From NCBI GenBank assembly GCA_021732845.1, contig JAKFUF010000142.1, positions 1-64,000 on the forward strand: a DNA stretch of 64,000 bases, written 5' to 3'. The notes beneath the pieces are model-generated. The model saw only the letters and a program-made list of their open reading frames with translations, had not been told where the DNA came from and ran no database searches. Positions 28,901 to 36,489 of this stretch are shown here, in pieces (position 1 is the first letter of the stretch; every line of letters begins with the position of its first letter). The position numbers and the translations under genes were made by a program. This DNA comes from Planctomycetaceae bacterium (lineage in GTDB: Bacteria > Planctomycetota > Planctomycetia > Planctomycetales > Planctomycetaceae).

Positions 28901-29521
28901 ATGATCGAATCACAAAACTCACTGCAAACTGGAGTTCTGCTGTCGCTCGCCCGCCAGGGTGACGAGGCGGCGCGCGGGGCGTTGCTGGAAAGCTATCGCA
29001 GCTACCTGGAACTGCTGGCCCGCGTCGAGATTGGCCGGCAGTTGCAAAAAAAGCTGGACACGGCAGATCTGGTGCAGGAGACGTTTCTCGAGGCGCATCG
29101 TAACTTCAGCTATTTCCGGGGCAGCGAAACCAATGAGTTCGCGGCGTGGCTGCGGGGAATCATGGCGGCGAAAGTGACCAACCTGCTGCGGCACTACCTG
29201 GGAGCGCAGGGCCGCGACATTCGCCGCGAGCGCGGGCTGGAAATCGATTTGGAAAACTCGTCGCGGATGTTCGACCGCGGCCTGCAGGCGTCGCAAAGCT
29301 CCCCCAGCCAGCATGTGGCCAAGCGGGAACATGGGCTGCTGCTGGCCGCCGCACTGGCCGAACTGCCCGAAGATTACCGCGAAGTCATCGTTTTGCGGAA
29401 CTTCGAGGAACTGGATTTTGCCGAAGTTGCCTCCCGCATGAACCGCACGGTCGACAGCGTGCAAAAAATCTGGGTCCGGGCACTGGGGAAGCTGAAAAAG
29501 ACCATGAAAGGCGTGCAATGA
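28901..29521 (+). CDS. RNA polymerase ECF-type sigma factor
   Basis: A 206-residue sigma-70-family factor of the planctomycete ECF group. Region 2 is at about 15-95 (LLARVEIGRQLQKKLDTADL, then VQETFLEAHRNF). Region 4 is at about 140-205 (LAELPEDYREVIVLRNFEEL, then a helix-turn-helix). It starts at ATG 28901 after a purine-rich GGAGCGGAGAGAG. Its stop overlaps the start of the following Ser/Thr kinase gene by 4 bp (ATGA), so the two are translationally coupled. In planctomycetes such sigma factors are commonly controlled by the linked membrane kinase rather than by a classical anti-sigma factor. The genes it controls are not shown by the sequence, but the co-oriented VTC/DUF4956/CotH genes are good candidates. 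Confidence 0.93.
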   Translation: MIESQNSLQTGVLLSLARQGDEAARGALLESYRSYLELLARVEIGRQLQKKLDTADLVQETFLEAHRNFSYFRGSETNEFAAWLRGIMAAKVTNLLRHYLGAQGRDIRRERGLEIDLENSSRMFDRGLQASQSSPSQHVAKREHGLLLAAALAELPEDYREVIVLRNFEELDFAEVASRMNRTVDSVQKIWVRALGKLKKTMKGVQ

Positions 29522-33993: not shown

Positions 33994-36489
33994 ATGAATC
34001 CATCCAACGATTCCCAAGACTCCAGAACACTCAAAAGCCATAACCATACCTCAGGATCCGCTGCCATGATCGACGAAGCCTCCTTTCTGCGCCGCAGCGC
34101 GCTATGCGCCTGTGTGTGCATCGCCCTGTGCGCCACCATCGTGTTTTCCCAGGGGCAGCCGCCCGACCAGCCACCGCCAGCCAACGGCGGACAGGGCCGG
34201 CCAGGCGGGTTCGCCGGTCCGCGTGGCTTCGGCCCGCCAGGCGGAGGGCCGGGGATGCTGATCGGAATCCCCGAGGTGCAGAAGGAACTCGCCCTCGATG
34301 AAAAGCAAATTCCGCAGATCAATCAGTGGAGCCAGGAGCTTGGCGAAAGATTCCGTGAGCTGTTTGAAAAGCTGAACCCATTCCAGCCTGATCTGGATCC
34401 GGAAGAGCGCGAAGAGCGGATGGCCGAGATCCGCACGAAATCGGAAGCGGTCAACAAGGAGGCCGAGGCGAAGCTGGAGAAGCTGTTGCAGCCGAAACAA
34501 TGGCAGCGGTTCAACCAGTTGAAACTGCAGCAGGAGGGCGCACAGGCGTTCAATCGTCCCGAGGTCGCGAAGCCGCTGGAACTGACCGAGGAGCAGAAGT
34601 CCAAACTGGAGGAACTGCGCGGCCAGGAATTTGGGCCGCCGGGTTTAAACCCGGAGACGATGGTCAAAGCCCTCGCCCTGCTGACTGACGACCAAAAGTC
34701 CAAGTGGACGGAGCTGACCGGACCGAAGTTCAGTTTTCCTGAGCCACGTGGGTTTGGCGGCGGCCGCGGTCCCGGCGGGCCGGGCTTCGGCGGGCAGGAA
34801 CGTAAGCTGGTCAAACAGTTCGACAAGAACAGCGACGGGTGGCTCAACGCCGAAGAGCGCAAAGCCGCCCGCGTCGCTGCGAAAGCTGCCCCCGGCCCCG
34901 GCGGACCGGGTGGCCCTGGCGGCCCCGGACGAGGACCCGGTGGCTTCGGCGGACCCGGTGGTCCAGGCGGCGGCCCAGGCGGGCCTGGTGGCTTCGGTCC
35001 TCCCGGCGGACGCGGCCCGGGTGGACCGGGTGGCCCAGGAGGATTTGGTGGTCGCAATGAGCCCGGCAAGCCGGGGCCGAAGGTGTCACCCGCCGACGTG
35101 AGTTCCGCTGGAGATGCTCCCCTCTACGAGCCAACGGTGATGCGGACGGTGTTCCTCGAATTCGAAAACCAGGATTGGGAAAGCGAACTGGTCGACTTCC
35201 ACAATACCGATGTCGAGGTTCCGGCCACGATGCAGGTCGATGGCAAAACCTATCCCAATGTGGGCATCCACTTCCGCGGGATGTCGTCCTACGGCATGGT
35301 TCCCAACGGCTCGAAACGGTCGTTGAATCTCTCGCTCGATTTTGTCGATCCGAAGCAGCGGCTGCAGGGTTACAAAACGCTGAACCTGCTCAATTCTCAT
35401 GAGGACCCAACCTTCCTGCATACGGTGCTGTATTCGCACGTGGCCCGGAAATACATTCCCGCCCCCAAGGCCAACTTCGTGAAGGTGGTCATCAACGGCG
35501 AAAGCTGGGGGCTGTATGTCAACGTGCAGCAGTTCGACAAGGTCTTCCTCGCGGAGAATTATCCCGATGCCAAGGGCACCCGCTGGAAAGTTCGCGGCAG
35601 CCCGGGCGGGGGCGGCGGCCTCGACTACGTCGGTGACAAGGTGGAAGACTACAAACGCCGGTATGAGATCAAAACGGAAGACAAAGAACAGGCGTGGAAG
35701 GATCTCATTGAGTTGTGCCGCCTGCTGAAGGAAACACCGGCGGACGAACTTGAAGCCAAGCTCACGCCGATCGTGGACATCGACCAGGTGCTGTGGTTCC
35801 TCGCGCTGGACAACGCCCTTATCAACAGCGATGGCTATTGGGTGCGGGCCAGTGACTACAGCATCTACCAGGATGGCAACCGCAAGTTCCACATCATCCC
35901 GCATGACATGAACGAAACCTTCCAGACCGCCATGGGACCGGGCATGGGTGGCCCCGGCGGACCAGGCGGTGGCTTCGGTGGCGGCTTTGGTGGACCAGGC
36001 CGTCCCGGTGGATTCGGCGGACGGCCCGGCGAAGGTCGGCCCGGCGAAGGCCGACCCGGCGAAGGCCGGGGAGGCCCACCGGGTGAAGGGCCGGGGCGCG
36101 GCGGCCGGGGCGGGCCGGGTGGCATGGCCGGCGGTGGCTACTCACTCGATCCGCTCATCGGCCTGAACGATTCCAGCAAGCCCCTGCGGAGCCGTCTGCT
36201 GGCGGTTCCCAGCCTGCGGGCCAAGTACATGGAACATGTAAAAACCATCGCTCAAGAATGGCTCGACTGGAAAAATCTGGGTCCCGTTGTCGCCCAATAC
36301 GAGACGCTGATCACCAAAGAGGTCGAGAGCGATACCCGCAAACTCACCTCGTTCGAGGAATTCAAAAACGCGCTGGCCTCGGGAGAGAACTCGGACAAAC
36401 CAGCCGACGGCAGGCGGTCCCGGTCGAACCTCTCGACCTTTGCCCGTGAACGCCAGAAGTTCCTGCTGGAATACAAGGCAAAAGAATGA
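33994..36489 (+). CDS. CotH-family protein kinase, secreted, with Spy-like N-domain and Gly-Pro repeats
   Basis: An 831-residue protein. A second ATG at 34066 (MIDEASFLRRS) puts a signal peptide (ALCACVCIALCATIVFSQ) at the N-terminus and may be the real start (807 residues). Counting from 34066: a Gly-Pro-rich linker, a Spy/LTxxQ-like helical domain (about 70-220), an EF-hand-like loop (DKNSDGWLNAEE), a long GGPGGPG repeat, then the CotH domain from about 340. The CotH domain includes VGIHFRGMSSYG, GLYVNVQQFDKVFL and a metal-site-like IPHDMNETFQ, and is interrupted after that motif by a second Gly-Pro-rich insert of about 70 residues. CotH proteins are atypical secreted or spore-coat kinases. 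The helical domain is shared with the upstream Ser/Thr kinase. Confidence 0.9.
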   Translation: MNPSNDSQDSRTLKSHNHTSGSAAMIDEASFLRRSALCACVCIALCATIVFSQGQPPDQPPPANGGQGRPGGFAGPRGFGPPGGGPGMLIGIPEVQKELALDEKQIPQINQWSQELGERFRELFEKLNPFQPDLDPEEREERMAEIRTKSEAVNKEAEAKLEKLLQPKQWQRFNQLKLQQEGAQAFNRPEVAKPLELTEEQKSKLEELRGQEFGPPGLNPETMVKALALLTDDQKSKWTELTGPKFSFPEPRGFGGGRGPGGPGFGGQERKLVKQFDKNSDGWLNAEERKAARVAAKAAPGPGGPGGPGGPGRGPGGFGGPGGPGGGPGGPGGFGPPGGRGPGGPGGPGGFGGRNEPGKPGPKVSPADVSSAGDAPLYEPTVMRTVFLEFENQDWESELVDFHNTDVEVPATMQVDGKTYPNVGIHFRGMSSYGMVPNGSKRSLNLSLDFVDPKQRLQGYKTLNLLNSHEDPTFLHTVLYSHVARKYIPAPKANFVKVVINGESWGLYVNVQQFDKVFLAENYPDAKGTRWKVRGSPGGGGGLDYVGDKVEDYKRRYEIKTEDKEQAWKDLIELCRLLKETPADELEAKLTPIVDIDQVLWFLALDNALINSDGYWVRASDYSIYQDGNRKFHIIPHDMNETFQTAMGPGMGGPGGPGGGFGGGFGGPGRPGGFGGRPGEGRPGEGRPGEGRGGPPGEGPGRGGRGGPGGMAGGGYSLDPLIGLNDSSKPLRSRLLAVPSLRAKYMEHVKTIAQEWLDWKNLGPVVAQYETLITKEVESDTRKLTSFEEFKNALASGENSDKPADGRRSRSNLSTFARERQKFLLEYKAKE

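What the first reader, a model, noticed from the sequence alone, without database searches (positions are those of the whole stretch)
28901..36489. Co-oriented ECF sigma / Ser-Thr kinase / VTC / DUF4956 / CotH locus
Five genes on one strand join a sigma factor translationally coupled to a membrane kinase with the VTC-DUF4956-CotH trio. The trio recurs in bacteria but has no described biochemistry that I know of. The combination suggests a signal-regulated envelope system that makes a phosphate polymer (VTC fold), moves or couples it (DUF4956) and phosphorylates secreted targets (CotH).
Basis: partly seen in the sequence, partly recalled or inferred. Interest (0 to 1): 0.7.

Follow-up and report, generated by a model that had tools for sequence, protein, structure and literature searches.

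The report
Kinase-controlled surface phosphate-polymer gene locus
In some planctomycete bacteria a membrane sensor kinase and its partner gene switch sit beside a widespread three-gene set that probably makes a phosphate polymer, handles it at the membrane and runs a secreted kinase, so the set may be a signal-controlled cell-surface system.

Summary
Five genes lie on the + strand: a planctomycete ECF sigma factor, a membrane Ser/Thr kinase overlapping it by ATGA, a VTC-domain protein, DUF4956 and a CotH protein. VTC lies near DUF4956 in 73 of 80 loci from many phyla. A sigma-kinase pair was seen near DUF4956 only in planctomycetes: 9 of 37 loci of the window's class, 5 of 22 named planctomycete loci, 0 of 44 in other classes, 0 of 58 in other phyla. 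Kinases with this sensor are rare: 17 in 30 genomes, 10 of them at DUF4956 loci, in varied gene orders; none in 10 relatives lacking DUF4956. The kinase's external sensor domain is homologous to the N-terminus of this locus's CotH (1.4e-20). VTC matches Vtc4 with conserved tunnel motifs. DUF4956 is a probable distant MgtC relative with an ACT-like tail (MgtC/ACT already in print for a streptococcal gene). Twenty of 20 DUF4956 genomes tested also carry PPK1. Best reading: a kinase/sigma-controlled envelope system with VTC-type phosphate chemistry and a secreted kinase. Control, biochemistry and co-transcription are unproven; a dispersed repeat separates kinase from VTC. Known pieces, new wiring.

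The parts
28901..29521 (+). ECF-type sigma factor, planctomycete subfamily TIGR02984; region 2.2 reads DTADLVQET in place of the canonical DAED
29518..32076 (+). Membrane Ser/Thr protein kinase; ATG overlaps sigma stop (ATGA); kinase domain, one hydrophobic helix (about 30970-31026), C-terminus predicted outside the cytoplasm
31351..32046 (+). Sensor domain of the kinase, homologous to the CotH N-terminal LTXXQ-type domain
32124..32292 (.). Dispersed palindromic repeat between kinase and VTC genes (MITE- or REP-like, not coding)
32349..33134 (+). VTC-domain protein, Vtc4-type tunnel motifs conserved; predicted polyphosphate polymerase
33326..33991 (+). DUF4956: five predicted helices (invariant V76 R77 F78 R79 D87) plus ACT/ferredoxin-like C-terminal domain (about 33752-33985); probable remote MgtC homologue
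33994..36489 (+). CotH-domain protein, predicted secreted (likely start 34067)
34255..34746 (+). LTXXQ (Spy/CpxP-type) helical domain of CotH, shared with the kinase sensor
34822..34857 (+). EF-hand-like loop DKNSDGWLNAEE in CotH; the pattern occurs in 29 of 36 CotH frames of same-class loci and 0 of 12 in other-class loci
   Evidence: pattern match; EF-hand consensus recalled
35266..36465 (+). CotH kinase domain (PF08757)

Best explanation
This is an envelope-response locus. Step 1 (inferred): the kinase's external LTXXQ-type domain senses an envelope state or ligand, perhaps through the same kind of contact that the CotH N-terminus makes. Step 2 (inferred from EcfP/PknT and EcfK/PknS): the kinase phosphorylates its coupled sigma factor, which then binds RNA polymerase. 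Step 3 (linkage shown, control inferred): the sigma factor switches on its own gene pair and the adjacent VTC-DUF4956-CotH genes. Step 4 (family and residues shown, activity inferred): VTC makes polyphosphate, or a related phosphate product, from ATP in the cytoplasm. Step 5 (structure predicted, role inferred): DUF4956, an MgtC/ACT-type membrane partner, couples that chemistry to the membrane, either by passing the chain out or by gating the enzyme. Step 6 (domain shown, secretion and activity inferred): CotH phosphorylates surface targets. My split confidences: the pair regulates the trio 0.65; VTC is a polyP polymerase 0.6; DUF4956 translocates the product 0.35; CotH is an active secreted kinase 0.5.
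For: Linkage: 9 of 37 window-type loci in the class and 5 of 22 named planctomycete loci have a sigma-kinase pair within 6 kb of DUF4956; 0 of 44 loci in other classes and 0 of 58 in other phyla. Specificity: 17 full-length kinases of this sensor type in 30 genomes, 10 at DUF4956 loci (the G008 one inferred across two contig ends) and one more beside a CotH without DUF4956; they occur in 13 of 20 DUF4956-positive and 0 of 10 DUF4956-negative genomes. Orders differ, while the kinases fall in one group with two off-locus ones, support 87/82. Shared domain: the kinase sensor profile finds the CotH N-terminus at 1.4e-20 in the window, in 9 other loci, and in a cut frame of L056. VTC: Vtc4 1.5e-15, all ten PDB hits are VTC proteins. 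DUF4956-MgtC: profile-profile 96.5% over 202 columns, reversed, ChrA and TauE controls 0.1-0.3%. CotH: 5jd9 7.8e-5, both Asp positions kept. Yeast VTC couples synthesis to translocation through a channel lined with basic residues (PMC9911596, passages).
Against: 28 of 37 same-class loci have no such pair within 6 kb, so it is an optional controller. Five full-length kinases of the type sit elsewhere, beside genes that look by eye like SCO1, HlyD/MacB, an RND pump, or nothing obvious. Four kinases beside DUF4956 lack the sensor (L023, L032, L145, L160). The repeat and a 191-nt gap argue against one transcript. No shared promoter motif was found. The sigma keeps two acidic residues (DTAD); the paired sigma of L023 reads EPDD and that of G008 (L131) DAAD, without a hydroxyl residue in the motif, and PMC8999054 warns that groups other than ECF43 may work differently. 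The PDB alignment of VTC covers profile positions 11-179 of 229. In S. intermedius a phenotype is reported for the DUF4956-like and cotH-like mutants, and none for the polyP-polymerase mutant in the passages read.
Confidence: 0.38

Rival explanations
1. DUF4956 is not a translocase. It acts as an MgtC/ACT-type regulator that senses a small molecule and tunes VTC activity, phosphate signalling or exopolymer assembly, and the trio modifies a surface polymer or matrix protein, as near the Gram-positive Pel locus.
For: MgtC-like profile and ACT-like tail; in S. intermedius loss of the DUF4956-like gene raised Pel while loss of the cotH-like gene lowered it (PMC12345266, passages); MgtC is said there to inhibit ATP synthase and target PhoR.
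Against: PelG is over cut-off in 0 of 34 DUF4956-carrying genomes (two have weak matches below it). An invariant Arg pair at the end of a predicted helix fits a phosphate path as well. A HlyD-type gene recurs by DUF4956 in 18 loci, 15 of them outside the window's class, and an OEP/TolC-type gene in 6, which fits export.
Confidence: 0.3
2. The sigma-kinase pair is a generic planctomycete regulator that happens to neighbour the trio and does not control it.
For: Relatives show 20-57 kinase matches per genome at 1e-20, some of them pieces of one kinase; the pair is absent from most DUF4956 loci; same-type pairs sit beside other genes.
Against: The specific sensor type is rare and lies at DUF4956 loci in 10 of 17 cases, against about 0.05 expected by rough arithmetic (17 kinases, 20-kb intervals, 7-8 Mb genomes). 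Gene orders differ, so simple inherited synteny is not enough. The sensor domain is shared with the locus's CotH.
Confidence: 0.2
3. The VTC protein is another triphosphate-tunnel enzyme (for example a phosphohydrolase or a transferase that feeds CotH), not a polyphosphate polymerase; storage polyP is left to PPK1.
For: PPK1 is present in 20 of 20 DUF4956-positive genomes tested; tunnel enzymes have several activities (recalled).
Against: Only Vtc2/3/4 chains appear among PDB matches, best 1.5e-15; the tunnel motifs are invariant in 19 sequences.
Confidence: 0.2

Closest known systems
CotH / polyphosphate polymerase / DUF4956 accessory genes of Gram-positive Pel loci (PMC7112168 and PMC12345266, passages read)
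   Same: Same three protein families side by side; the transmembrane protein is described there as MgtC plus ACT domains.
   Different: PelG over cut-off in 0 of 34 DUF4956-carrying genomes tested, own genome included; a kinase-sigma pair is added; this CotH carries an LTXXQ domain and an EF-hand-like loop. The 2025 paper reports not finding this arrangement outside Pel loci; VTC and CotH both lie near DUF4956 in 42 of 80 named loci here.
Eukaryotic VTC complex (Vtc1/3/4)
   Same: Vtc4-type catalytic domain with conserved tunnel motifs; a membrane partner bearing invariant basic residues.
   Different: No SPX domain found; catalytic and membrane parts on separate proteins; the membrane partner looks MgtC-like.
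ECF sigma factors controlled by Ser/Thr kinases (EcfP/PknT, EcfK/PknS; planctomycete groups ECF59, 61, 62, 217)
   Same: Sigma gene coupled to a membrane Ser/Thr kinase gene; a hydroxyl residue in the region-2.2 motif; planctomycete examples listed in PMC8999054 (passages).
   Different: DTAD keeps two acidic residues; sensor is an LTXXQ-type domain; no phosphorylation shown; ECF group not assigned here.
CotH spore-coat kinase (Bacillus)
   Same: PF08757 domain, both aligned Asp kept (5jd9 alignment).
   Different: Predicted secreted, in a lineage not known to sporulate (recalled), with LTXXQ domain and EF-hand-like loop before the kinase domain.
Spy/CpxP/CnrX envelope sensors
   Same: CotH N-terminus passes the PF07813 cut-off (2.8e-7); weak CnrX and Spy fold matches.
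   Different: The window kinase's sensor itself does not hit PF07813; fold matches are not significant (best Foldseek E 1.7).

Membership tests
VTC / Vtc4-type polyphosphate polymerase | VTC tunnel domain by profile | tested here: met
   PF09359 5.7e-31; Vtc4 structures 1.5e-15
VTC / Vtc4-type polyphosphate polymerase | Basic and acidic tunnel residues kept | tested here: met
   E45, K47, K105, R107, R109, E120, K122, K131, R133, R179, R192, D196, E226, K228, K253 invariant in 19 sequences; motifs in profile positions 11-179 align to Vtc4; catalytic roles recalled
VTC / Vtc4-type polyphosphate polymerase | Makes polyphosphate from ATP | not testable with these tools
   needs an assay
Eukaryotic VTC complex | SPX domain on the VTC chain | tested here: not met
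   261 aa, only VTC found by Pfam at 0.001
DUF4956 (PF16316) | Profile match over cut-off | tested here: met
   44.3 bits against 30.6
MgtC/SapB (PF02308) | Homology over membrane and C-terminal domains | tested here: inconclusive
   No direct Pfam hit; profile-profile 96.5% full length, membrane part 91-92%, ACT part 57%; controls under 1%; 2lqj (MgtC C-terminus) is Foldseek rank 47, E 0.013
CotH kinase | PF08757 domain and two active-site Asp | tested here: met
   3.9e-39; both Asp aligned to 5jd9 (catalytic role recalled)
CotH kinase | Protein kinase activity | not testable with these tools
   needs an assay
Kinase-activated ECF sigma (ECF59/61/62 type) | Sigma gene coupled to a Ser/Thr kinase gene | tested here: met
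   ATGA overlap; paired in relatives
Kinase-activated ECF sigma (ECF59/61/62 type) | DAED replaced so that a phospho-residue supplies charge | tested here: inconclusive
   DTAD here; 9 of the 10 paired sigmas at DUF4956 loci have Ser or Thr in the motif, L023 reads EPDD; L131 (G008) reads DAAD; two Asp remain in the window's
Kinase-activated ECF sigma (ECF59/61/62 type) | ECF group profile | not tested
   no ECF group models on hand; TIGR02984 matched
Pel-associated cassette | pel genes alongside | tested here: not met
   PelG (PF16933): no match in own genome; over cut-off in 0 of 34 genomes, two matches below it
LTXXQ (Spy/CpxP) | PF07813 over cut-off | tested here: met
   CotH N-terminus alone 31.6 bits against 24.3, whole CotH 22.5, below it; the window kinase sensor did not match PF07813 but is homologous to that CotH domain

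The most novel reading that the evidence does not exclude
VTC and DUF4956 form a bacterial two-protein polyphosphate synthase-translocase that sends the chain out of the cytoplasm, where ATP is scarce, and the secreted CotH kinase uses that polyphosphate as its phosphate donor (or target), so the trio is a self-contained extracellular phosphorylation machine. In planctomycetes it is placed under a kinase-sigma switch whose sensor is the same kind of domain that CotH carries, closing a feedback loop.
Probability: 0.12. Interest if true: 0.85.

Novelty: new variant of a known kind. Interest (0 to 1): 0.56.

Why it matters
How secreted kinases in bacteria get phosphate outside the cell is, as far as I know, open (recalled). 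A conserved unit that pairs a Vtc4-like polymerase with an MgtC-like membrane protein and a predicted secreted kinase gives a direct test. The survey also shows that the trio is not confined to Pel loci, as the 2025 streptococcal paper suggested, but is a widespread module that some planctomycetes keep beside a kinase-sigma pair. That gives predicted targets for planctomycete kinase-linked sigma factors.

Tried and rejected
Promoter search: upstream 200 nt of 18 paired sigma genes, spaced 4+4 dyads, best shared by 5 loci against 3-4 in 20 shuffles; no usable motif. Pel link: not supported. Fold of the LTXXQ domain: confident model (pLDDT 90.5) but only weak PDB matches, best Foldseek E 1.7, CnrX Z 6.7 and Spy Z 5.0-5.5, within the range the tool calls common. 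DUF4956: no sequence match to solved structures worth keeping (best E 0.69). VIA matches to ribosomal protein S6 and NikR cover only the ferredoxin-like tail, a common fold, so they were not used for function. The first MgtC comparison (88.6%) had junk rows from wrongly oriented loci and was redone. TauE lines were stale output after a failed run and were redone. Kinases without the sensor near L023, L032, L145 and L160 were counted as kinases but not as the sensor type. Kinases without a sigma gene lie outside the 6-kb limit in L093, L164 and L165, and sigma-like frames without a kinase occur in several other loci. For the tree 37 of 45 kinases were used: I dropped L058, L093, L141 (split), L146, L164, L165, L214 and one row under 150 aa. 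Considered and set aside: the five genes as one transcript (gaps and repeat), and storage polyP as the role (PPK1 in 20 of 20). After re-checking I lowered the main confidence from 0.40 to 0.38 because two paired sigmas lack a hydroxyl residue in the motif.
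Full report
Anatomy. Five genes lie on the + strand. The sigma factor (28901-29521) matches the planctomycete subfamily TIGR02984. The kinase (29518-32076) starts inside the sigma stop codon (ATGA). It has a kinase domain, one strong hydrophobic helix and about 350 residues beyond it. VTC (32349-33134) has only the VTC domain by Pfam. DUF4956 (33326-33991) is a predicted membrane protein. CotH (to 36489) has a signal-peptide-like start at 34067 (by eye), an LTXXQ domain, an EF-hand-like loop, a Gly/Pro-rich linker and the CotH domain. The kinase-VTC gap folds well beyond shuffles (z -4.69) and holds a repeat with 44 matching stretches in the genome, itself included. So the five are one cluster but perhaps not one transcript.

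Spread of the trio. I searched 59 genomes, own included, with the window DUF4956 (20 matched) and 393 phylum genomes with PF16316 (137 matched). I fetched 101 neighbourhoods of up to 20 kb (not every match was fetched) and 80 more from named genomes, the best 80 of a capped scan. The counts use home-made profiles and a 6-kb limit. Same family or class: 56 loci, of which 19 gave no window-type DUF4956 at 1e-20 and were dropped; of the other 37 (three genomes give two loci each among the 56), VTC is near in 25 and CotH in 23. Other classes of the phylum: 45 loci, 44 counted, VTC 43, CotH 26. Named genomes: 80 loci, VTC 73, CotH 48, both 42; their titles include Verrucomicrobia, Acidobacteria, Actinomycetes and Clostridia. 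The VTC-DUF4956 pair is thus the core and CotH a frequent third.

Sigma-kinase link. A sigma-kinase pair lies within 6 kb in 9 of 37 same-class loci and in 5 of 22 loci whose titles I sorted as planctomycetes, and in 0 of 44 and 0 of 58 elsewhere. Two further same-class loci have the kinase just outside the count: one split over two contig ends (G008, inferred) and one about 7.7 kb away (L027). Arrangements differ: upstream on the same strand (window, L023, L030, L036, L065), divergent (L032, L047, L048, L151), embedded between the genes (L033, L166, L168), convergent (L037, L172) or downstream (L154). Not all these loci show every trio gene: L036 and L151 gave no VTC hit, for example. Full-length kinases of this sensor type (E under 1e-55) number 17 in 30 genomes: 10 at DUF4956 loci, 1 beside a CotH only, 1 on a 3.6-kb contig, 5 elsewhere. 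The profile was built from 13 such sequences, 10 of them at DUF4956 loci, so it leans towards them; it also found members not used to build it, both at and off such loci. They occur in 13 of 20 DUF4956-positive genomes and in 0 of 10 DUF4956-negative relatives; these genomes share ancestry, so no probability is claimed. In a tree of 37 kinases, 13 sensor kinases from DUF4956 loci and the G008 one fall with two off-locus ones (L125, L129) in a group of 16 (support 87/82).

Shared sensor domain. A profile of the kinase's external domain, run on the open frames of 60 aa or more in the fetched neighbourhoods, hits sensor kinases and otherwise only the N-terminal part of CotH frames: the window plus L023, L024, L050, L052, L065, L145, L149, L152, L171, and a frame in L056 cut by the contig end. 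Genome-wide other copies exist in frames I did not identify. Taken alone, the CotH domain passes the PF07813 cut-off. Its model is helical and confident, but PDB matches (STV, CnrX, Spy) are weak. So the kinase and CotH may read the same ligand or bind each other; this is inference.

VTC. The profile of 19 sequences finds only Vtc2, Vtc3 and Vtc4 chains in the PDB at 0.01, best 1.5e-15, with the Lys, Arg-x-Arg, Glu-Arg-Lys and following motifs aligned. Twenty of 20 DUF4956-positive genomes tested also have PPK1, so VTC is probably not needed for ordinary polyphosphate storage.

DUF4956. AlphaFold2 on 62 sequences gives pLDDT 86: five helices and a beta-alpha-beta-beta-alpha-beta tail. The tail matches ACT and other ferredoxin-like domains. 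Compared with 21 planctomycete MgtC sequences, the profile-profile probability is 96.5% over 202 columns, against 0.2% for reversed profiles, 0.3% for ChrA and 0.1% for TauE; the tail alone is weaker (57%), and these are single pairwise comparisons. V76-R77-F78-R79, D87, G98 and G102 are invariant in 62 sequences. MgtC and ACT domains were reported in 2025 for SIR_1592 of S. intermedius (PMC12345266, passages; that SIR_1592 is a DUF4956 protein is my inference from PMC7112168). A HlyD-type gene recurs near DUF4956 in 18 loci, 3 of them in the window's class, often abutting it, and an OEP/TolC-type gene in 6 (one representative of each named by Pfam).

Sigma switch. Region 2.2 reads DTADLVQET here. 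Of the 10 paired sigmas at DUF4956 loci shown there, 9 have Ser or Thr in the four-residue motif; L023 reads EPDD, and the G008 sigma (L131) DAAD. Reviews state that in kinase-linked ECF sigma factors the DAED charge is supplied by phosphorylation, Thr in ECF43 and Ser in ECF59, and they list a Planctomicrobium example (PMC8103513, PMC8999054, passages); EcfK is directly phosphorylated by PknS (PMC13147305, passages). The window sigma keeps two Asp, so the switch may be partial or different.

Literature on the trio. In the searches, DUF4956 was named with CotH only in PMC7112168 (Gram-positive Pel). A VTC/CotH cluster is tabled for a C. perfringens locus, where a sigma-70-type gene is listed shortly before the first VTC gene (PMC2879425, passages); PMC11677781 (C. 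perfringens, listing only) holds related terms; the 2025 S. intermedius paper gives mutant phenotypes. In the passages I saw no kinase-sigma pair tied to the trio. PelG is over cut-off in 0 of 34 DUF4956-carrying genomes, so the genes exist without Pel.

Verdict. The linkage is real, specific and, as far as these searches show, new as a variant; control and biochemistry are inference. Interest is moderate: a clear, testable system built from known parts, with one bold reading (polyphosphate as an extracellular phosphate donor) that nothing here excludes.

Noticed in passing
window 32124-32292: Palindromic non-coding repeat of about 140-170 nt with 44 matching stretches in the genome (itself included); looks MITE- or REP-like.
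   Followed up: partly
window 41635-41818 and 21838-21888: Two tandem 92-nt copies (98% alike) and a diverged partial copy 20 kb away.
   Followed up: no
window 22194-22261 and 24839-24906: 68-nt inverted repeat, 88% complementary, around two open frames; translated fragments share RACPKPNTPxCRIVSP.
   Followed up: no
e.g. L096:5132-6319, L107:11701-13416: A HlyD-type gene recurs near DUF4956 (cluster of 18 loci, 15 outside the window's class) and an OEP/TolC-type gene in 6, which hints at an export machine.
   Followed up: partly
L125, L128, L129: The same type of sigma plus LTXXQ-sensor kinase pair sits beside genes that look (by eye) like SCO1, a HlyD/MacB exporter and an RND pump; perhaps a general envelope or efflux regulator type.
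   Followed up: partly
L033 and L042 (genome G030): Two DUF4956 loci in one genome; the sigma-kinase pair was found at one of them only.
   Followed up: no
window 36616-37620: AraC-like regulator (by eye, not run against a library) directly downstream of CotH on the same strand.
   Followed up: no
L060, L062, L069, L070, L073, L079: A second, more canonical DUF4956 subfamily (PF16316 to 1e-50) next to VTC; no kinase hit and CotH weak or absent.
   Followed up: no
PMC2879425 table: In C. perfringens a sigma-70-type gene is listed shortly before the VTC/DUF4956-like/CotH genes: a possible independent sigma-trio link.
   Followed up: no
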